Positions 3,727 through 19,122 of a stretch of 64,000 nucleotides of DNA are shown here, in pieces. A model generated the notes under the pieces. That model saw only the letters and a program-made list of their open reading frames with translations, made no database searches and was not told the origin of the DNA. The stretch's first letter is position 1, and the number at the start of each line of letters is the position of its first letter. A program made the position numbers and the translations under genes. This DNA comes from Pseudomonas subflava (lineage in GTDB: Bacteria > Pseudomonadota > Gammaproteobacteria > Pseudomonadales > Pseudomonadaceae): NCBI RefSeq assembly GCF_023823685.1, contig NZ_JAMXBF010000001.1, forward strand, positions 124,001 to 188,000, given 5' to 3'.

Positions 3727-3803
<77 letters not shown>

Positions 3804-3809
3804 GCGGCC

Positions 3810-3837
3810 ATTCTACTCAGGGACGGGTTTGTGTCAA
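3810..3837 (-). promoter_or_regulatory. Sigma-70 promoter of tRNA-fMet copy 3
   Basis: On the minus strand a perfect -35 TTGACA and a -10 TAGAAT are separated by 16 bp, with the tRNA 5' end 6 bp beyond the -10 box. The same elements occur before each copy. Confidence 0.8.
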
Positions 3838-3879
3838 TCGATTTTTGCTTTTTAATCAATTAGATAAATCGTAGGCAAG

Positions 3880-3907
3880 AAAAAAGGCCACTCGTTTGAG
3901 TGGCCTT
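3880..3907 (-). terminator. Rho-independent terminator of tRNA-fMet copy 2
   Basis: The inverted repeat AGGCCACTC / GAGTGGCCT with an AAAC loop is followed on the minus strand by a run of six T. It lies just 3' of the tRNA at 3918-3994, so each tRNA is a separate transcription unit. Confidence 0.85.
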
Positions 3908-3917
3908 CTTCTGAATC

Positions 3918-3994
<77 letters not shown>

Positions 3995-4000
3995 GCGGCC

Positions 4001-4028
4001 ATTCTACTCAGGGACGGGTTTGTGTCAA
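4001..4028 (-). promoter_or_regulatory. Sigma-70 promoter of tRNA-fMet copy 2
   Basis: TTGACA, 16 bp, TAGAAT on the minus strand: an exact copy of the promoter 191 bp away. Confidence 0.8.
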
Positions 4029-4070
4029 TCGATTTTTGCTTTTTAATCAATTAGATAAATCGTAGGCAAG

Positions 4071-4098
4071 AAAAAAGGCCACTCGTTTGAGTGGCCTT
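4071..4098 (-). terminator. Rho-independent terminator of tRNA-fMet copy 1
   Basis: The same GGCCACTC stem and T-run as at 3880-3907, placed 3' of the tRNA at 4109-4185. Confidence 0.85.
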
Positions 4099-4108
4099 CT
4101 TCTGAATC

Positions 4109-4185
<77 letters not shown>

Positions 4186-10456: not shown

Positions 10457-10475
10457 GATAATTATTCTCATTCGA
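10457..10475. promoter_or_regulatory. Fur box upstream of pirR
   Basis: GATAATTATTCTCATTCGA matches the 19-bp Fur consensus (GATAATGATAATCATTATC) at 13 positions, including the first six and the TCATT core. It lies 12-30 bp before the pirR ATG, fitting iron repression of the pirRS operon, and could also affect the divergent gacS promoter. Confidence 0.75.
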
Positions 10476-10486
10476 GATTCATCCGC

Positions 10487-11188
10487 ATGTCTGCCGCCTC
10501 TGCCCGTATCCTCGCCATCGAGGATGACCCGGTGTTGGCCGCGCATCTGCAGGAGCACCTCGGCCGCCGCGGCTTCGACGTGACCCTGCGGGGCGACGGC
10601 GACGCCGGCCTGACGCTGGCCTGTACCGAGCCCTTCGATCTGGTGCTGCTGGACATCCTGCTGCCCGGTCGCAATGGCCTCGACGCCCTGGCCGAACTGC
10701 GTCGTCGCCGTGGCGTGCCGGTTATCCTGATGTCTGCCCTGGGCGCCGAACAGGATCGCATCGCCGGTTTCAGCCAGGGCGCCGACGACTACCTGCCCAA
10801 GCCCTTCGCCATGGCCGAGATGGAGGTGCGTATCGACGCCATCCTGCGTCGCGTGGCTTATGAACGCCGCGAGCGGGAGCCCGCGAGCGCAGCGCTGCCG
10901 GAGCTGGATGAGGCGCACCAGGATGTGCGCCATGCCGGGCAGTGGGCGCAGCTGACCGGCACCGAATTCCGATTGCTGGAACTCCTGGTGCGCCATGCCG
11001 GCGAGGTGCTGAGCAAGGCGTTTCTCTACCAGCAGGTGCTGCACCGCCCCTGGTCGCAGCACGACCGCGGGCTGGACATGCACGTCAGCCACATCCGTCG
11101 CAAGCTGCAGGCCATCGGCTACCAGGCCGGCCGCGTGGAGACGGCCTGGGGCAAGGGCTACCTGTTCCAGCGCGACGAGAATCAATGA
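10487..11188 (+). CDS. pirR: Response regulator PirR (siderophore receptor regulation)
   Basis: A 233-residue OmpR-family regulator. The receiver domain has acidic residues IEDD near 11-14, the phospho-acceptor Asp 56 in LVLLDILLPGRNG, and a lysine in YLPKPFA. A winged-helix DNA-binding domain follows (about 130-230) with TGTEFRLLELLVRHAG and the typical VETAWGKGYLF end. The ATG at 10487 gives MSAASARILAIEDD; an upstream in-frame ATG at 10451 would run through the Fur box and is unlikely. It overlaps pirS by 4 bp. Placement directly before a sensor kinase and a catecholate-type receptor matches PirR of P. aeruginosa, which activates pirA. Confidence 0.88.
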   Translation: MSAASARILAIEDDPVLAAHLQEHLGRRGFDVTLRGDGDAGLTLACTEPFDLVLLDILLPGRNGLDALAELRRRRGVPVILMSALGAEQDRIAGFSQGADDYLPKPFAMAEMEVRIDAILRRVAYERREREPASAALPELDEAHQDVRHAGQWAQLTGTEFRLLELLVRHAGEVLSKAFLYQQVLHRPWSQHDRGLDMHVSHIRRKLQAIGYQAGRVETAWGKGYLFQRDENQ

Positions 11189-12528
11189 TGCTCACCCTGC
11201 ACTCGGTGTTCTGGCGCCTGGCGGTGTTGCTCATCAGTTTCTGCCTGCTGATCGTCTGGCTGGTGTGGTACTGGGGCGGGAGCGTCGAGCAGGTCGGCTA
11301 CCGCCTGAATGAGGAGTCCCAACGCCAGTTGCTGGAATATGCGGCCGAGGCCGAGCAGGCCTGGCGCGGCGGCGGGCGCGGGGGTGTCGATCGCTGGCTC
11401 GAACAGATGCGGCAGCGCGAGGCGGGCTGGGTCGCCGTGCTCGGCCCGGGCCTGCATTCGTTATCGAGCCGCGAGCTGAGCGGTGCCGAACTGGAGCGGC
11501 TGACCTTCGTCCGGCGCATCGATTGGCCGATGAGCAAGCGCAGCATCGGTCTGCCCTGCCTGCTGGTGCCGTTCCCCGGGGTGCCCGATGAGGGGCGCCT
11601 GGCCATCGAATTGCCCGAGCGCATGTTGCCACCGGGTTTCACCCTGACGACTCAATTGCTGGTGCATGGCCTGGTGCCGGGGGTGTTGGCATTGCTGTTG
11701 TGCCTGTTGATCTATCGCCTGCTCATCGCGCCGCTGAAACACCTGCGGGAACAGGCCGACGCCCTGCGGGGCGATCACCTGAATACCCGCGTGGCGCCAC
11801 AGGTCAGTCGCCGCGACGATGAACTGGGTGCATTGGGGCGCGCCTTCGATCACATGGCCGAGCGGCTGGAATACACGGTGAGCTATCAGCGCCAGTTGCT
11901 GCGCGATCTGTCCCACGAGCTGCGCACGCCGTTGTCACGGCTGCGCGTGGCCGGCGAATGCGCCAGCGACGTGGAAGTGCTGCGCCAGCGTCTGGAACGC
12001 GAGGTGGAATGCATGCAGCGGCTGGTCGACGACACTCTCGAACTGGTCTGGCTGGACACCGAGCGGCCCCAGCCGGAGCTGGAGGAGATCGACGTGCCGG
12101 CGCTGTGGAGCGTGCTTGGCGAAGACGCCTGCTTCGAGAGTGGCTGGGAGGCGGCGCGGCTGCGTTGCGAGCTGCCTGCCGACTGCAGGGTGCGTGGCCA
12201 TCTCAACGGCCTGGCCCAGGCTCTGGAGAACATCCTGCGCAATGCCATCCGCCATTCGCCTGCGGATGGCGTGGTGCGCCTCGGTGGCAAGCGCGACGGC
12301 GACCATTGGCACCTGCACCTCGAGGACCAGGGCGGCGGTGTGGCGGCTCAGCAACTGGAAACCATCTTCCGCCCCTTCACCCGCCTGTGCGCCGCCCGCC
12401 CGGGGGGAGAAGGATTCGGACTGGGGCTGGCCATCGCTCGCGGCGCGTTGCGTATGCAGGGTGGCGAGCTGTGGGCGGAGAACGGTCGCGAGGGTTTGCG
12501 CCTGAATATACGGCTGCCAAGTGTATAA
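11185..12528 (+). CDS. pirS: Sensor histidine kinase PirS
   Basis: A 447-residue inner-membrane kinase expected to sense ferri-siderophore in the periplasm and phosphorylate PirR. It has an N-terminal transmembrane helix (about 7-30), a periplasmic segment of about 120 residues, a second helix (about 150-180, GLVPGVLALLLCLLIYRLL), then HAMP, HisKA with the phospho-histidine in RDLSHELRTPLSRLR, and HATPase with N-box NILRNAIRHSP and G-boxes including GEGFGLGLAIARG. Two ATG codons stand in tandem at 11185 and 11188; the first overlaps the pirR stop. It is 136 bp upstream of pirA. Confidence 0.88.
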   Translation: MMLTLHSVFWRLAVLLISFCLLIVWLVWYWGGSVEQVGYRLNEESQRQLLEYAAEAEQAWRGGGRGGVDRWLEQMRQREAGWVAVLGPGLHSLSSRELSGAELERLTFVRRIDWPMSKRSIGLPCLLVPFPGVPDEGRLAIELPERMLPPGFTLTTQLLVHGLVPGVLALLLCLLIYRLLIAPLKHLREQADALRGDHLNTRVAPQVSRRDDELGALGRAFDHMAERLEYTVSYQRQLLRDLSHELRTPLSRLRVAGECASDVEVLRQRLEREVECMQRLVDDTLELVWLDTERPQPELEEIDVPALWSVLGEDACFESGWEAARLRCELPADCRVRGHLNGLAQALENILRNAIRHSPADGVVRLGGKRDGDHWHLHLEDQGGGVAAQQLETIFRPFTRLCAARPGGEGFGLGLAIARGALRMQGGELWAENGREGLRLNIRLPSV

Positions 12529-12546
12529 ATTGTAAATGCACTTTAC

Positions 12547-12568
12547 TGACAAATAGGAATTTCTATCA
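12547..12568. promoter_or_regulatory. Imperfect palindrome ahead of pirA, candidate operator
   Basis: In the 135-bp AT-richer gap between pirS and pirA, a TGACAAATAGG / TTTCTATCA arrangement forms an imperfect inverted repeat. It partly resembles a diverged Fur or PirR target. No clean Fur consensus is present. Confidence 0.3.
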
Positions 12569-12663
12569 TTTGCGCCGATTTCCACGCGCGGAGCGTGGTC
12601 GCGTCGGCATTCCCGCTCATTCGTCGATCGTTTCCGCGCCTGTCTGCCTTCAGGAGAAGATCG

Positions 12664-14931
12664 ATGTCCGCGCGATTCAACTTGAGTCACCTGTCCATGG
12701 CCTTGCTGGCCGCCACGGCGGTGGCTGCCCCCGCCACGCCGTTGCTGGCCGCCCCGCAGGCCGACCAGGTGCCGGTCATGGCCGATGATCTGCCGGTGGA
12801 GGGCAGCGAGCAGGCCCTGCAACTGGAAGAGACCCGCGTGCTGGGCACCGCCGAGGAAGAGCTGAAGCAGGCTCCGGGCGTGTCGATCATCACCGCCGAG
12901 GACATTCGGAAGCTGCCGCCGACCAACGACCTGTCCGAGATCATCCGCCGTGAGCCGGGCGTCAACCTGACCGGCAACAGCACCAGCGGCAGCCGCGGCA
13001 ACAACCGCCAAGTCGACCTGCGCGGCATGGGCCCCGAGAACACCCTGATTCTCATCGACGGCCAGCCATCCACCTCGCGCAACGCGGTGCGCTATGGCTG
13101 GAACGGCGATCGCGACACCCGCGGTGAGACCAACTGGGTACCGGCGGAGCAGGTCGAGCGCATCGAAATCCTGCGGGGTCCAGCGGCCGCGCGCTACGGT
13201 TCCGGCGCCATGGGCGGGGTGATCAACATCATCACCAAGCGCCCGACCGAGAAGCTCAGCGGTTCGGTCACAGCCTACACCTCGCTGCCCGAGGATGACG
13301 CCGAGGGGATGAGCAAACGTACCAACTTCAGCCTCAGCGGCCCGCTCAGCGACGCCTTCTCGTTCCGCCTGTACGGCGGTGTCAGCACCACCGATGCCGA
13401 CGACGCCGACATCAATGCCGACCACCAGGCCAGCGCCGACGCTATGGTTTCCGGCCGCGAGGGCGTGCGCAACAAGGACATCAACGGCCTGCTCAGCTGG
13501 CAGCTGAACCCCGAGCAGGTCCTCGACCTGGAGGCCGGCTACAGCCGCCAGGGCAACATCTACGCCGGCGACACCATGAACAACAACGGTGGCGGCAACC
13601 CCGAGTTCATCAGCAGCCTGTATGGCCGGGAAACCAACGTGATGCAGCGCACCAGCTATGCGCTGACCCACAAGGGCGACTTCGACTGGGGCACGTCCAA
13701 GGCCTCGTTGGGCTACGACTACACCCGCAACTGGCGCCTCAACGAAGGCCTGGCCGGCGGCCCCGAGGGTGCGCCGAGCGAGGGCGCCGGCGCCTTCATG
13801 TCGCGCCTGCGCAACACCCGCGCCAATGCCGAAGTGAACCTGCCGCTCAGTGCCGGTTTCGAGCAGGTGCTGACTCTCGGCAGCGAGTACCTCTACGAGT
13901 CGCTCAACGACCCGGGCTCGCTGCGCACCCAGTCGGGCTGGGACCCGGTGCCGGGCGACATCCCCGGCTTCAGCCGCGGCGAAACCAAGACCACCGCGCA
14001 CAGCTATGCGCTGTTCGTCGAGGACAACATCGAGATCGGCGAGCGCACCATCGTCACGCCCGGCCTGCGCTTCGACGATCATGAGGAATTCGGCGGCAAC
14101 TGGAGCCCCAGCCTCAATGCCTCCCACGAGCTGACCGACGAGCTGACCCTCAAGGGCGGGATCGCCCTCGCCTACAAGACCCCCAACCTGTACCAGTCCA
14201 ACCCTGGCTATCTGCTGTACAGCCGCGGCAACGGCTGCAACGCCAGCGAGCCGAATACCGGCAGTGGCTGCTACCTGGTGGGCAACCCGGACCTGGAGCC
14301 GGAAACCAGCGTCAACAAGGAAATCGGCCTGGCCTTCGACAAGGGCAACTGGCGTACCAGCGCGACCTACTTCCGCAACGATTACCGCAACAAGATCGTT
14401 GGCAGCAACGAGTACATCTTCCGCCTGGCCAACGGCCGTCGCGTGCTGCAGTGGGAGAACACCGACGAGGCGGTGGTCGAGGGCGTGGAGGGCAACTTGT
14501 TCGTCGAGCTGACCCCGAGCCTGGACTGGAACACCAACTTCACCTACATGCTCGAGTCCGAGGACAAGGAAACCGGCGAGCCGCTGAGCGTCATCCCCGA
14601 GTACACCCTCAACAGCAGCCTCGACTGGCAGGCCACCGCGCAGCTGTCGTTCCAGTTGACCGGCACCTACTACGGCAAGCAGGAGGCGCCGAGCCTGAAC
14701 CGTCGCACCGGCCAGGAAATCGATGCGCAGGCTCAGCAGGACGTCGATCCCTACGGCCTGGTGGGCGTCAGCGGTGGCTACGAGTTCAACCAGAACTACA
14801 GCCTGCGGGTCGGCATCAGCAACCTGTTCGACAAGCAGATCTACCGCGAAGGCAACGCCAACGACGCCGGTGCCAACACCTACAACGAGCCGGGACGCGC
14901 CTACTACGCATCCGTCACCGCCTCGTTCTGA
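12664..14931 (+). CDS. pirA: TonB-dependent catecholate siderophore receptor PirA
   Basis: A 755-residue outer-membrane receptor. A signal peptide (about 1-30, cleavage after LLAAP) is followed by a TonB-box-like LEETRVLG near residue 55, the plug domain with APGVSIITAEDIRKLP and VERIEILRGPAAARYGSGAMGGVINIIT, and a 22-strand barrel ending in the outer-membrane signature ASVTASF with terminal phenylalanine. It imports ferric enterobactin-type or related catecholate complexes. The ATG at 12664 has an AGGAG 9 bp upstream; the frame is open for 23 more codons but these lack a ribosome-binding site. Position after pirRS supports PirA over the paralogue PfeA. Confidence 0.9.
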   Translation: MSARFNLSHLSMALLAATAVAAPATPLLAAPQADQVPVMADDLPVEGSEQALQLEETRVLGTAEEELKQAPGVSIITAEDIRKLPPTNDLSEIIRREPGVNLTGNSTSGSRGNNRQVDLRGMGPENTLILIDGQPSTSRNAVRYGWNGDRDTRGETNWVPAEQVERIEILRGPAAARYGSGAMGGVINIITKRPTEKLSGSVTAYTSLPEDDAEGMSKRTNFSLSGPLSDAFSFRLYGGVSTTDADDADINADHQASADAMVSGREGVRNKDINGLLSWQLNPEQVLDLEAGYSRQGNIYAGDTMNNNGGGNPEFISSLYGRETNVMQRTSYALTHKGDFDWGTSKASLGYDYTRNWRLNEGLAGGPEGAPSEGAGAFMSRLRNTRANAEVNLPLSAGFEQVLTLGSEYLYESLNDPGSLRTQSGWDPVPGDIPGFSRGETKTTAHSYALFVEDNIEIGERTIVTPGLRFDDHEEFGGNWSPSLNASHELTDELTLKGGIALAYKTPNLYQSNPGYLLYSRGNGCNASEPNTGSGCYLVGNPDLEPETSVNKEIGLAFDKGNWRTSATYFRNDYRNKIVGSNEYIFRLANGRRVLQWENTDEAVVEGVEGNLFVELTPSLDWNTNFTYMLESEDKETGEPLSVIPEYTLNSSLDWQATAQLSFQLTGTYYGKQEAPSLNRRTGQEIDAQAQQDVDPYGLVGVSGGYEFNQNYSLRVGISNLFDKQIYREGNANDAGANTYNEPGRAYYASVTASF

Positions 14932-14947: not shown

Positions 14948-15004
14948 CCCGCCGCTCCGGCGGGCCCTCGGCTCCGCCCGGCTTCGGCCTGGCGGGGCCT
15001 TTCC
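14948..15004 (+). terminator. Double hairpin between pirA and the esterase gene
   Basis: A perfect CCCGCCG/CGGCGGG stem with 3-nt loop (14948-14964) is followed by a 9-bp GGCTCCGCC/GGCGGGGCC stem (14970-14999) and a short T-rich stretch. It may partly terminate pirA transcripts or protect their 3' end, lowering expression of the genes behind it. Confidence 0.5.
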
Positions 15005-15019
15005 TTGAGAGGTACTCGC

Positions 15020-15967
15020 ATGCGTCGCTTTGATCGCCGACTCATTGCCTCCCTGCTCGGCCTGCTGCTGAGCCTGCTGGCGTCGACCGCGCCGGCCCGC
15101 CCCGATGCCCAGCAGCGCCTCGGCGAGACCCTGGTCGAACGCGGCTCAGCGCACTACCGCTTCGAGCACTTCGAGCTGGCCTCGGCCGACGGCCAGCGCC
15201 ACTATCGGGTGCGCCTGGGCATTCCGCGTAGCGCGCCTCCGGCGGCCGGCTACCCCGCGCTCTATTTGCTCGACGGCAACGCTGCGCTGGCAGCGCTGCG
15301 CGAGGACTGGCTGGCTGAGCTGAGCCAGGGCCAGCCGCCGTTGCTGGTGCTGATCGGCCCGGCCAGCGACAACCGCCTGGACCTCGAAGCGCGGATGCTC
15401 GACTACACTCCCGCGCCACCCGCCGGTCCCGGCACCTTGGACCCGGCGCTGGGCGATCGCCCCAGCGGCGGTGCGGAGGCGTTTCGCGAACTGCTGGTGC
15501 AGCGGATCCGCCCGCAAGTATTGAAGCGGGTCGCCGTGGACGAGAGCCGTCAGGGCATCTGGGGCCATTCGCTGGGCGGGCTGTTCGTACTCGACAGCCT
15601 GTTTTCCATGCCGGCCGCCTTCCACTTCTATATCGCCGCCAGCCCCTCGCTCTGGTGGCAATCCGGCCTGCTGCTCGAGCGCCATCGCGACTTCGCCGGG
15701 GCCCAGGCGCGCCTGCTGATCCTGCGTGGCAGCGAGGAGCGCCCGTCATATCGTGCGGGTGCGGTGGACTCGCCGCGGGTGCGGGCCATGGCGGCGGTGC
15801 CGGCGGACGCGCCGCTGCGGCTTGCCGAGCGTCTGGATGCGCTGCCGGGCATGCACGCCGAGTTCCGCCAGTTCGCCGGCCTCGGCCACGGGCCGATGCT
15901 GGCAGCATCGCTGCGTCCGGCGCTGCGCCTGCTCGCCGGTCTCGAACCGTGGGAGGCCACTCCATGA
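15020..15967 (+). CDS. Periplasmic siderophore esterase-like alpha/beta hydrolase
   Basis: A 315-residue secreted hydrolase of the esterase D/IroE/PfeE type. It has a signal peptide (about 1-27, ending TAPARP). The nucleophile elbow GHSLGG puts the serine at residue 184, and AGLGHGPM near the C-terminus supplies the likely histidine. YPALYLLDGNAAL and IAASPSLWWQ are typical of enterobactin-class esterases. Such enzymes cleave triscatecholate esters in the periplasm to loosen iron. It lies 88 bp behind pirA, and its stop overlaps the DUF3649 start, so it belongs to an iron operon. The exact substrate is not readable from sequence. Confidence 0.8.
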   Translation: MRRFDRRLIASLLGLLLSLLASTAPARPDAQQRLGETLVERGSAHYRFEHFELASADGQRHYRVRLGIPRSAPPAAGYPALYLLDGNAALAALREDWLAELSQGQPPLLVLIGPASDNRLDLEARMLDYTPAPPAGPGTLDPALGDRPSGGAEAFRELLVQRIRPQVLKRVAVDESRQGIWGHSLGGLFVLDSLFSMPAAFHFYIAASPSLWWQSGLLLERHRDFAGAQARLLILRGSEERPSYRAGAVDSPRVRAMAAVPADAPLRLAERLDALPGMHAEFRQFAGLGHGPMLAASLRPALRLLAGLEPWEATP

Positions 15968-16233
15968 GAGCCGTGTTTTCCCGCGCCATGGCTGCGCTGC
16001 TGGGCGGCTATGCCTTCACCTACGCCTTTACCGCCTGCCTGGCGCGTCTGCTGCCGTTGGATCGAGTCGACTCGTTGCTGGTCGCCAGCCTGCCGGCGTT
16101 CGTCGTTTACGCCCTGGCGGTGCTGTGGGCCTTTGCGGCGCGTGACGCCTGGCGCGCCTGGCTTGGTGTGCCGCTGGCGCTGCCACTGGCGCTGATCGGC
16201 TTTTGGCCGCAACTGCTGGAGCATCTGGGATGA
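15964..16233 (+). CDS. DUF3649 small inner-membrane protein (iron uptake)
   Basis: An 89-residue protein with three predicted membrane helices (about 8-28, 35-60, 63-82). It matches DUF3649, a family found next to PepSY and DUF3325 genes at siderophore loci; the module recalls FpvH of the pyoverdine Fe-release system, though I cannot confirm homology by eye. The ATG overlaps the esterase stop by 4 bp and the gene's own stop overlaps the PepSY start, so translation is probably coupled. It likely acts as a partner subunit of the PepSY membrane protein. Confidence 0.75.
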   Translation: MRAVFSRAMAALLGGYAFTYAFTACLARLLPLDRVDSLLVASLPAFVVYALAVLWAFAARDAWRAWLGVPLALPLALIGFWPQLLEHLG

Positions 16234-17768
16234 AAAAGCAGACCCTGACGCAGGCCATGGCCTGGCTGCATACATGGAGCGGCCTGCTGTTCGGCTGGCC
16301 GTTGTTCGCCATTTTTCTCACCGGCAGCCTGGCGGTGTTCGACCAGGAGATCGACCACTGGATGCAGCCGGAAGTCCAGCGCCAGGACGTGCCCGTCGCC
16401 CTGGCGGCCGAGCATGCCGTGGCCTACCTGCAGCGCCACCACGCCGACGCCGGCGCCTGGAACATCGCCTTGCCTAGCGAGCGCGATCCTGGCCTGCGGG
16501 TAACCGCCGGGGATCGTCGCCGCGGCATCAGCACCGACCTCGACCCGCGCACCGGCGAGCCGCTGAAGGTGCGCGAAGCCGCCGGTGGCAGCTTCTTCTT
16601 CCATTTTCACTACACCCTCAACCTGCCGCGGCAGATCGGCATCTGGGTGGTTGGCCTGGTGGCGCTGGTGACCCTGGCCACGCTGGTCAGCGGCATCATC
16701 ATCCACAAGAAGCTGTTCAAGGAGTTCTTCACCTTCCGCCCGAACAAGGGGCAGCGGTCCTGGCTGGACTTCCACAACGCCAGTGGCGTGCTGTTGATGC
16801 CGTTCCACCTGATGATCGTCTATACCGGGCTGGTCATCTTCGGCCTGATCTATCTGCCGGCCGCACTGCACGCCTTGTATGACGGCGACTTCGAAGCCTT
16901 CTATCAGGAGGCCATCGGGGAGGCCCCCCATCATCACGGACCGAGCCGCGCGCCGCTAGCGACGCTGGTCGCCCTCGGTCCGTTGCTGGCGCAGGCGGAG
17001 GAACGCATGGGGCCGCTCTCGGCAGTGAGCATCAGCCATCCCGGCCGGTCCGACGCTCTGGTCGAGGTGCGCCGCGTGTTGGGCAATCGCATCGCCCTGA
17101 GCAAGGGCCACAACATGGTGTTCGACGGCGTCAGCGGCAAGCTGCTCGCCGGCCCGCCGGAACTGCGGCCGAGCGTGTTGACCCAGCGGGTGATGTTCGG
17201 CCTGCACTTCGCCCAGTTCGGCGGCTACCCGATGCGCTGGCTGTACTTCTTCTGTGGCCTGGTGGGCAGCGCGATGATCGCCAGCGGGCTGGTGCTGTTC
17301 ACCGTCAAGCGTCGACGCAAATATCTGGTCGAGGGTAGGGCAGGGGACTTCGGTCATCGTCTGATCGAGGGCCTGAATGTTGCCGTGATCGCCGGTCTGA
17401 CCCTGGCCTGCATCGGCCTGTTCTGGATCAACCGCGTGTTGCCGGTGGAGCTGGCTCAGCGTGCCGGTTGGGAGCTGCGCCTGTTCTTCGCGCTTTGGGC
17501 GCTCACTCTGCTGCACGGCTGGTGGCGCCCGCACCTGCAGGCCTGGAGGGAGCAGCTTGGGCTGGCCGCGCTGTTGTGCCTGGGCCTGCCGCTGCTCAGC
17601 GCGCTGACCGTCGACCACCCCTGGGACGATCGCACCCGGCTGTTGCTGGAGGCGACCAGCGTGATCTGCGGCGCGCTGCTGGCCTGGACCACCTGGCGCA
17701 TCGGTCGACGCGCCGAGCAGCCGGCACCGCGGCGGCACAAGGCGAGCGCCGCGCTGGAGGTGAACTGA
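16230..17768 (+). CDS. PepSY-associated transmembrane protein, candidate ferri-siderophore reductase subunit
   Basis: A 512-residue inner-membrane protein of the PepSY_TM family (PiuB/FpvG-like). Helices are predicted near residues 15-37, 150-175, 190-215, 335-360, 380-405, 420-440, 450-470 and 480-500. Large extracytoplasmic parts lie between the first and later helices. Conserved histidines sit at helix ends (LHTWSG, FHFHYTLN, LDFHNASG, MPFHLMI, GLHFAQFGG) and could ligate haem or metal, as proposed for FpvG, which reduces ferric siderophore in P. aeruginosa. It starts at an ATG overlapping the DUF3649 stop and ends 1 bp before the DUF3325 gene. The reductase role is inferred. Confidence 0.8.
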   Translation: MKKQTLTQAMAWLHTWSGLLFGWPLFAIFLTGSLAVFDQEIDHWMQPEVQRQDVPVALAAEHAVAYLQRHHADAGAWNIALPSERDPGLRVTAGDRRRGISTDLDPRTGEPLKVREAAGGSFFFHFHYTLNLPRQIGIWVVGLVALVTLATLVSGIIIHKKLFKEFFTFRPNKGQRSWLDFHNASGVLLMPFHLMIVYTGLVIFGLIYLPAALHALYDGDFEAFYQEAIGEAPHHHGPSRAPLATLVALGPLLAQAEERMGPLSAVSISHPGRSDALVEVRRVLGNRIALSKGHNMVFDGVSGKLLAGPPELRPSVLTQRVMFGLHFAQFGGYPMRWLYFFCGLVGSAMIASGLVLFTVKRRRKYLVEGRAGDFGHRLIEGLNVAVIAGLTLACIGLFWINRVLPVELAQRAGWELRLFFALWALTLLHGWWRPHLQAWREQLGLAALLCLGLPLLSALTVDHPWDDRTRLLLEATSVICGALLAWTTWRIGRRAEQPAPRRHKASAALEVN

Positions 17769-17769
17769 G

Positions 17770-18105
17770 ATGCTGAGCGCTTTCTTCGGCGGGCTGGTGC
17801 TCGCCTACGCCGGCATGGTCGGCCTGTGTCAGGGCCTGGAGCGTCACTACAAGCAGGTGTGGCAACGTTTGCCGGCACCGGTGTTGCGCCGTGGGCTGCG
17901 CCTGGCAGGCTGGGCTAGTCTCGCGGCCAGCTTCGCCGCCAGCGTGGCGGCCTGGGGGTGGGCCATGGGTCCTGTGGGCTGGTTCGGCCTGATTTCTCTG
18001 GCGGGCTTCGCCCTGGTCATGCTGCTGCCCTATGCGCCACGCCTGAGCCTACTGCTGGTACCAGCGGGGGCGTTCGCCTGGGGCCTGGCCTGGCTGATCG
18101 CCTAA
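17770..18105 (+). CDS. DUF3325 small inner-membrane protein (iron uptake)
   Basis: A 111-residue protein with three or four predicted helices (about 4-20, 44-64, 68-85, 90-110). It fits DUF3325, which occurs with PepSY and DUF3649 genes near siderophore receptors. It is the last gene of the pirA-linked cluster and follows the PepSY gene immediately. It probably forms part of the same membrane complex. A GC-rich stretch of about 110 bp separates it from cysM; no clear terminator with a T-run is seen there. Confidence 0.72.
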   Translation: MLSAFFGGLVLAYAGMVGLCQGLERHYKQVWQRLPAPVLRRGLRLAGWASLAASFAASVAAWGWAMGPVGWFGLISLAGFALVMLLPYAPRLSLLLVPAGAFAWGLAWLIA

Positions 18106-18219: not shown

Positions 18220-19122
18220 ATGACCGTGCAGTACCCCACCATTGCCGACTGCATCGGCAACACCCCGCTGGTCCGCCTGCAGCGCCTGCCCGGCAACACC
18301 TCGAACACCCTGCTGGTGAAGCTTGAGGGCAACAACCCGGCTGGCTCGGTGAAGGACCGTCCGGCGCTGTCGATGATCACCCGCGCCGAACTGCGCGGCG
18401 ACATCCAGCCCGGCGACACGCTGATCGAGGCCACCAGCGGCAATACCGGCATCGCCCTGGCGATGGCGGCGGCGATCAAGGGCTACAAGATGATCCTGAT
18501 CATGCCGGACAACTCCACCGACGAGCGCAAGTGGGCGATGACCGCCTACGGCGCCGAGCTGATCCTGGTCAGCCGCGAGGAGGGCATGGAGGGCGCCCGC
18601 GACCTGGCCGAGCGTCTGCAGGCCGACGGCCGCGGCAAGGTGCTGGACCAGTTCGCCAACGGCGACAACCCGGAGGCCCACTATCTGAGCACCGGCCCTG
18701 AGATCTGGCAGCAGACCCAGGGCGGCATCACCCATTTCATCAGCTCCATGGGCACCACCGGGACCATCATGGGCACCTCGCGCTACCTCAAGGAGCAGAA
18801 CCCGGCGATCCAGATCGTCGGCCTGCAGCCCCAGGAGGGCTCGGCCATTCCCGGCATCCGCCGCTGGCCGGAGGAATACCTGCCGAAGATCTACCAGGCC
18901 GAGCGGGTCGACCGGGTTATCGACATGTCCCAGGCCGAGGCCGAAGACACCATGCGGCGCCTGGCGCGTGAGGAGGGCATCTTCTGCGGCGTGTCGTCCG
19001 GCGGTTCGGTGGCCGGCATGCTGCGCCTGTCGCGCGAGGTGGAGAACGCGGTGATGGTGGCGATCATCTGCGACCGCGGCGACCGCTATCTGTCGACCGG
19101 TATCTACCAGCAGCCCCAGTGA
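18220..19122 (+). CDS. cysM: Cysteine synthase B
   Basis: A 300-residue PLP enzyme of beta-substitution type that makes cysteine from O-acetylserine with sulfide or, in the CysM class, S-sulfocysteine with thiosulfate. Seen: [18 protein letters not shown], the PLP lysine at residue 45 in [12 protein letters not shown], the TSGNTG substrate loop, the [13 protein letters not shown] phosphate-binding loop and [13 protein letters not shown] took the ATG at 18220 ([11 protein letters not shown]), as in CysM homologues; a GTG 21 bp upstream would only add seven unusual residues. Position before rlmD and relA is the conserved Pseudomonas order. Confidence 0.93.

What the first reader, a model, noticed from the sequence alone, without database searches (positions are those of the whole stretch)
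14948..18105. Four-gene iron-release module added behind pirA
Between pirA and cysM lie an esterase with GHSLGG, DUF3649, a histidine-rich PepSY protein and DUF3325, the last four coupled by overlaps or 1-bp gaps. In PAO1, as I remember it, cysM follows pirA directly. The set combines import, periplasmic ester cleavage and a PepSY membrane protein like FpvG, which suggests that iron is freed from the siderophore both hydrolytically and reductively in the periplasm. A double hairpin behind pirA may set the ratio of receptor to processing proteins. The combination with a PirA-type receptor is the best candidate here for a poorly described system.
Basis: partly seen in the sequence, partly recalled or inferred. 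Interest (0 to 1): 0.68.

Follow-up and report, generated by a model that had tools for sequence, protein, structure and literature searches.

The report
Iron-release operon behind catecholate siderophore receptor
Behind a siderophore receptor gene in a Pseudomonas of the P. alcaligenes group sit a ferri-enterobactin-type esterase and a three-gene membrane reductase cassette, an uncommon but recurrent pairing that offers a concrete candidate for the reductase still missing from the Pseudomonas enterobactin pathway.

Summary
pirR-pirS-pirA is followed by a PfeE-like esterase, DUF3649, a PepSY_TM protein and DUF3325 (two 4-bp overlaps, one 1-bp gap), then cysM. It is not a four-gene module unique to this place. 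It is a three-gene cassette (DUF3649-PepSY-DUF3325) that follows TonB-dependent receptors widely in Pseudomonas and at all seven loci read from other gammaproteobacterial genera, plus an optional esterase. Among 99 FepA-type receptor loci in a 299-genome sample of the genus, 9 have both, 29 the esterase only, 28 the cassette only, 33 neither. The same order stands in P. alcaligenes. Best reading: a catecholate xenosiderophore operon in which periplasmic ester hydrolysis is followed by PepSY (FoxB-fold, heme-type) reduction; the P. aeruginosa literature calls that reductase 'yet unidentified'. In one relative an ABC importer occupies the cassette's slot; in two others receptor type and esterase differ while the cassette stays. 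No FeoB was found in this genome, so how iron crosses the inner membrane is open. The turnerbactin cluster and Bacteroidota Xus operons are precedents. New variant of a known kind, moderate interest. Nothing here was shown experimentally.

The parts
10457..10475 (+). Fur-box-like site GATAATTATTCTCATTCGA, 13 of 19 matches to the P. aeruginosa consensus, just upstream of pirR
   Evidence: only 13/19 match in the 64-kb window; the pirR Fur box of PAO1 is experimentally verified and the consensus is given in PMC9426570
10487..11188 (+). pirR, response regulator
   Evidence: open frame translated; position next to pirS; named by synteny with PAO1 pirRS-pirA (PMC9426570)
11185..12528 (+). pirS, sensor histidine kinase
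   Evidence: Pfam HK_sensor, HAMP, HisKA, HATPase_c
12542..12569 (+). sigma-70-like promoter upstream of pirA (weak consensus match)
   Evidence: TTTACT-16-TATCAT, 9 of 12; the shuffles expect 0.9 such sites, so weak
12664..14931 (+). pirA-like FepA-family TonB-dependent receptor
   Evidence: NCBIfam FepA family 1094 bits; 60% identical to PAO1 PirA, 54% to PfeA; the only FepA-type receptor of the genome
14948..15002 (+). double hairpin between pirA and the esterase, no long U tract
   Evidence: fold z-score -3.2; stems kept in four relatives
15020..15967 (+). periplasmic PfeE/IroE-type siderophore esterase; Ser184 in GHSLGG, His290; predicted signal peptide 1-26
   Evidence: PF00756; phmmer to PfeE 6gi0 1e-60 over the whole mature chain and IroE 2gzr 2e-47; S184 and H290 invariant over 15 sequences; only such gene in the genome
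15964..16233 (+). DUF3649 small membrane protein, 89 aa, overlaps the esterase by 4 bp
   Evidence: PF12365 22.1 bits, cut-off 21.2; homologues in the same position at about 60 loci
16230..17768 (+). PepSY_TM protein, predicted heme-type ferrisiderophore reductase, with extra C-terminal transmembrane helices
   Evidence: PF03929 228 bits; predicted model matches only FoxB 7abw below E 0.001 (E 7e-8); invariant His14, 127, 159, 182, 326, 429 over 60 sequences
17770..18105 (+). DUF3325 small membrane protein, 111 aa
   Evidence: PF11804 99 bits; conserved position behind the PepSY gene

Best explanation
This is probably an iron-regulated, two-component-controlled operon for using catecholate xenosiderophores of the enterobactin type. 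The receptor brings the ferric complex into the periplasm. The PfeE-like esterase opens the ester backbone, which weakens chelation and raises the redox potential. The PepSY protein, with the two small membrane proteins DUF3649 and DUF3325 as partners, then passes electrons from the inner membrane through bound hemes to Fe(III) on the hydrolysed ligand and releases Fe(II) in the periplasm. Shown here: gene content, order, overlaps, homologies, FoxB-like fold of the predicted model, conserved histidines, recurrence and separability of the parts. Inferred: order of reactions, heme binding, ligand, complex formation, Fur and PirR control, co-transcription. Unknown: the inner-membrane iron importer.
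For: Esterase PfeE-like, with predicted signal peptide and catalytic residues. Receptor of the FepA family. PepSY model matches FoxB, a periplasmic ferrisiderophore reductase (as described in PMC10866019, and PMC13038864), with invariant His at both ends of the helices. PMC8001512 states that iron release from enterobactin in P. [quoted passage not shown] The cassette stands behind a receptor at nearly all loci read, also in six other gammaproteobacterial genera. Esterase and this cassette co-occur in genomes: 46 with the cassette, 61 with the esterase, 27 with both of 299, odds ratio 9, p 3e-10, not corrected for kinship. In G001 a binding protein, two FecCD permeases and an ATPase fill the cassette's slot between esterase and cysM, which points to the iron-handling step after the esterase. 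The only esterase of this kind and the only FepA-type receptor of this genome lie in this operon.
Against: No activity, heme, ligand or transcript data. The cassette is found without an esterase at most of its loci, and 12 of 28 cassette-only receptor loci lie in genomes with no PfeE-like esterase, so a sequential reaction is not required for its function. PAO1 PirRS responds to plant catechols and not to enterobactin, so the ligand may be something else. FeoB, the usual importer of Fe(II), was not found in this genome. The PepSY model is of middling confidence (pLDDT 73, TM-score to FoxB 0.38-0.50).
Confidence: 0.55

Rival explanations
1. Parallel rather than sequential: the esterase serves cyclic ester catecholates and the PepSY cassette serves other, non-ester catecholates imported by the same receptor; they share an operon only for common regulation.
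For: Esterase and cassette occur singly at 29 and 28 FepA-type receptor loci and together at only 9; cassettes without an esterase sit behind IrgA/CirA-like receptors.
Against: At the pirRS-cysM locus, receptor type and esterase differ between close relatives while the cassette stays (L061 vs L062, L063 vs L065), as if the cassette were the common downstream step; only 3 independent pairs, p 0.25.
Confidence: 0.2
2. The natural ligands are plant catechols, some of them esters such as chlorogenic acid; the esterase splits these and the cassette reduces the iron.
For: [quoted passage not shown] PirRS did not respond to enterobactin in PAO1 (PMC8001512).
Against: The esterase is most like PfeE and IroE, enzymes of enterobactin-type siderophores; this genome has no separate pfe locus, so this locus probably also covers enterobactin; sensing may have diverged.
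Confidence: 0.2
3. The cassette itself moves the iron across the inner membrane: the small proteins and the extra helices of the PepSY protein form a reductase-permease that replaces an ABC importer or Feo.
For: An FecCD-type ABC importer fills the cassette's slot in G001; FeoB not found here; the PepSY protein has helices beyond FoxB's four, with invariant residues such as His429.
Against: No homology to any transporter; PepSY relatives are described as reductases only; other Fe(II) carriers (NRAMP, ZIP, EfeU, Sit-type ABC) were not searched for.
Confidence: 0.13
4. The PepSY protein is a copper or respiratory-assembly reductase of the CrpH kind and only happens to lie here.
For: PepSY_TM proteins are diverse and some support heme-copper oxidases (PMC13038864).
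Against: Constant position behind siderophore-type receptors across genera; a PepSY-DUF3325 pair is listed in the Fur regulon of S. maltophilia (PMC6240677).
Confidence: 0.03

Closest known systems
P. aeruginosa PfeA-PfeE and PirRS-PirA (ferri-enterobactin/catechol uptake)
   Same: FepA-family receptor, two-component system, periplasmic esterase of the same family; pirRS upstream, Fur box upstream of pirR (PMC9426570)
   Different: In P. aeruginosa pfeE is regulated with pfeA by PfeRS and the reductase is unidentified (PMC8001512); here one locus holds TCS, receptor, esterase and a reductase-type cassette
FoxA-FoxB and FpvG (PepSY ferrisiderophore reductases of P. aeruginosa)
   Same: PepSY_TM domain, FoxB fold, conserved His, gene next to a receptor
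   Different: Weak sequence likeness to FoxB (phmmer E 0.012), extra C-terminal helices, two small partner proteins, catecholate-type receptor, esterase
HiuABC of Caulobacter (PMC12424826)
   Same: Receptor + PepSY protein + small inner-membrane partner, Fur-regulated
   Different: Hydroxamate ligands; neither DUF3649 nor DUF3325 was found in the Caulobacter control genome; no esterase
Turnerbactin cluster of Teredinibacter turnerae (PMC3795760)
   Same: TonB-dependent receptor, two small proteins of 87 and 100 aa, PepSY protein and a Fes-like esterase in one triscatecholate siderophore cluster
   Different: Biosynthetic cluster, different gene order; whether the small proteins are DUF3649/DUF3325 was not tested
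XusABC of Bacteroidota, with esterase BDI_3403 in Parabacteroides distasonis (PMC13142918)
   Same: Receptor, PepSY protein and periplasmic esterase in one xenosiderophore operon
   Different: Surface lipoprotein XusB, no DUF3649/DUF3325 reported; other phylum

Membership tests
PfeE/IroE-type periplasmic siderophore esterase | Full-length homology to a solved member | tested here: met
   6gi0 1e-60 over residues 27-302, 2gzr 2e-47
PfeE/IroE-type periplasmic siderophore esterase | Catalytic Ser in GHS-x-GG and catalytic His | tested here: met
   S184 and H290, invariant in 15 sequences; the PDB variant 6gi1 has Ala at this Ser
PfeE/IroE-type periplasmic siderophore esterase | Export to the periplasm | tested here: met
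   by prediction only: basic N-terminus, hydrophobic stretch 8-26, mature part aligns with the start of the crystal construct
PfeE/IroE-type periplasmic siderophore esterase | Hydrolysis of ferri-enterobactin | not testable with these tools
   needs an enzyme assay
PepSY_TM ferrisiderophore reductase (FoxB/FpvG/HiuB) | PepSY_TM domain and FoxB fold | tested here: met
   PF03929 228 bits; FoxB the only PDB match below 0.001
PepSY_TM ferrisiderophore reductase (FoxB/FpvG/HiuB) | Conserved His on both membrane faces as heme ligands | tested here: met
   H14, H127, H182, H326 invariant over 60 loci; H14, H127 and H326 align with His of FoxB; membrane faces inferred from helix positions, heme itself not tested
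PepSY_TM ferrisiderophore reductase (FoxB/FpvG/HiuB) | Reduction of a ferrisiderophore | not testable with these tools
   needs biochemistry
PirA of P. aeruginosa | pirRS upstream and cysM downstream | tested here: met
   window and relatives; for PAO1 pirRS-pirA is from PMC9426570, cysM only from memory
PirA of P. aeruginosa | One-to-one orthology by sequence | tested here: inconclusive
   60% to PirA, 54% to PfeA, while PAO1 PirA and PfeA are 61% identical to each other and pair outside the window's clade (quick tree, support 94, long branches)
HiuABC | Same small partner protein family | tested here: not met
   Caulobacter control genome has no DUF3649 or DUF3325 match
Fur-regulated operon | Fur box in the promoter region | tested here: met
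   13/19 at 10457, best of the window; binding and regulation not tested

The most novel reading that the evidence does not exclude
DUF3649-PepSY-DUF3325 is an inner-membrane reductase-importer complex: it reduces the iron of the esterase-opened catecholate and carries it across the inner membrane, so that it can stand in for an FecCD-type ABC importer at the same locus and works in a cell without Feo.
Probability: 0.13. Interest if true: 0.75.

Novelty: new variant of a known kind. Interest (0 to 1): 0.42.

Why it matters
The step after PfeE in Pseudomonas enterobactin piracy is an acknowledged gap: the reductase is unidentified and the route of the freed iron into the cytoplasm unknown (PMC8001512). 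An operon that puts a PfeE-type esterase and a FoxB-type reductase with two conserved small membrane proteins under one two-component system makes that gap testable by single-gene deletions. It also gives DUF3649 and DUF3325, families without known function, a likely role as partners of a PepSY reductase. PirA-type receptors also take up siderophore-antibiotic conjugates (PMC9426570), so what happens to the iron behind them is of practical interest.

Tried and rejected
Four-gene module unique to this place: rejected, the order recurs in P. alcaligenes, P. peli, P. anguilliseptica and others. Hairpins as a dispersed repeat: within the window only one exact copy of the first hairpin, near matches at chance level; not searched genome-wide. 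Known RNA element: no Rfam match. Search for P. aeruginosa in the sample with the PAO1 PirA sequence, to see whether it has the cassette elsewhere: best match 64%, so no P. aeruginosa genome was reached and the question stays untested. Formal test of receptor-esterase co-change: 3 of 3 pairs agree, too few for significance. FeoB: FeoB_C finds nothing in this genome although 7 control genomes ring; FeoB_N finds only low-scoring matches, which I take for other GTPases. FoxB structure paper not held. The first coordinates I used for the esterase were one base off.
Full report
OBSERVATION. The reported genes exist as described. Order on the + strand: pirR 10487-11188, pirS 11185-12528, pirA 12664-14931, hairpins 14948-15002, esterase 15020-15967, DUF3649 15964-16233, PepSY 16230-17768, DUF3325 17770-18105, cysM 18220-19122. 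Pfam supports every domain. The DUF3649 match is marginal in score but is backed by homologues in the same place at about 60 loci.

WHAT EACH PART IS. The receptor is a FepA-family receptor. It is 60% identical to PAO1 PirA and 54% to PfeA; those two are 61% identical to each other and pair outside the clade that holds this protein, so 'pirA' is a name by locus. The esterase is PfeE/IroE-like over its whole mature length with the catalytic Ser and His. The PepSY protein has the PepSY_TM domain. Its predicted structure (22-sequence alignment, pLDDT 73) matches only FoxB in the PDB below E 0.001. Six histidines are invariant over 60 loci; three of them align with FoxB histidines. DUF3649 and DUF3325 are small hydrophobic proteins with few invariant residues.

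HOW COMMON. A scan of one genome per species found the window's exact order in three loci of the P. alcaligenes group, and the same set with an added methyltransferase-type gene between receptor and esterase in the P. peli/anguilliseptica group. In 299 genomes of the genus, 83 hold a FepA-type receptor at 99 loci. Nine loci have esterase and cassette, 29 the esterase only, 28 the cassette only, 33 neither. Of the 28 cassette-only loci, 16 lie in genomes with an esterase elsewhere and 12 in genomes without one. These counts are approximate: some receptors sit at contig ends (for example G169), and the list of weak DUF3325 matches was cut. DUF3325 occurs in 207 of 299 genomes of the genus and in 7 of 274 genomes of the class sample, this one included. 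At all seven loci of that class sample outside this genome (six genera) the order is receptor-DUF3649-PepSY-DUF3325, taking the DUF3325 positions together with the neighbours. The three-gene cassette is therefore the conserved unit and the esterase an add-on.

NATURAL EXPERIMENTS AT THE LOCUS. In G291 and G013 the pirRS-to-cysM locus keeps the cassette but carries another receptor (28-29% identical; the one of G291 is nearest to IrgA/VctA/CirA-like families) and no esterase, while their near relatives G280 and G053 carry a FepA-type receptor with the esterase. The three independent receptor changes on the PepSY tree go with the esterase, too few for a significant test. In G001 the locus reads pirS-pirA-esterase, then binding protein-FecCD-FecCD-ATPase, then cysM: an ABC importer where the cassette would be. 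In G296, G031 and G190 PirS is followed by the cassette with no receptor between, and the FepA-type receptor of these genomes stands elsewhere.

REGULATION. The best Fur-box match of the whole window (13/19) lies 11 bp before the pirR start codon. In PAO1 the pirR Fur box is experimentally verified, and PirRS responds to plant catechols (PMC9426570). The hairpins are stable and conserved in four relatives. The second has only a short T-rich tail, so a partial stop or an mRNA-stabilising element is possible; neither was tested.

MECHANISM. The literature on PfeE says that iron release needs hydrolysis and a reduction by an unidentified reductase, and that the inner-membrane route is unknown (PMC8001512). 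PepSY proteins such as FoxB, FpvG, FhuB and HiuB are periplasmic ferrisiderophore reductases or proposed to be (PMC10866019; PMC12424826). That hydrolysis of enterobactin makes its iron easier to reduce is established chemistry (listed as 'hydrolyzed by esterase then metal reduction' in PMC8891985). Combining these gives the sequential model as the best explanation. What counts against certainty is that the cassette is usually found without the esterase, and that the ligand is unknown. FeoB_C was not found in this genome and FeoB_N gave only low-scoring matches, so the usual next carrier seems absent.

NOVELTY. The components and the idea of esterase plus PepSY protein in one cluster have precedents: the turnerbactin cluster (PMC3795760) and the P. 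distasonis Xus operon (PMC13142918). A full-text search found no paper on DUF3649 and one passing mention of DUF3325. This specific Pseudomonas operon seems undescribed in the library held, which lacks most subscription journals. I rate it a new variant of a known kind.

Noticed in passing
L110 (G001), pirA-esterase-cysM locus: A complete FecCD-type ABC importer (binding protein, two permeases, ATPase) occupies the slot held by the DUF3649-PepSY-DUF3325 cassette in the window.
   Followed up: yes
L061 (G291) and L065 (G013): Same pirRS-cysM locus and cassette, but the receptor is of another (IrgA/CirA-like) type and the esterase is missing: apparent receptor exchange at a fixed locus.
   Followed up: partly
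L037-L039, L041, L045, L064, L066: A methyltransferase with a MethyTransf_Reg domain stands between receptor and esterase or cassette; its role in siderophore use is unexplained.
   Followed up: partly
L068, L083, L084 (G296, G031, G190): PirS-like kinase gene followed directly by the cassette without a receptor; the FepA-type receptor of these genomes lies elsewhere.
   Followed up: no
own genome G000, all contigs: No FeoB_C match and only low-scoring FeoB_N matches: the genome seems to lack the Feo ferrous iron importer.
   Followed up: partly
own genome G000:C21:541000-556000 (L058): A second DUF3649-PepSY-DUF3325 cassette behind a receptor with an N-terminal signalling-type extension.
   Followed up: partly
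window 3727-4185, - strand: Three tRNA-Met (CAT) genes in tandem, evenly spaced (191 bp).
   Followed up: no
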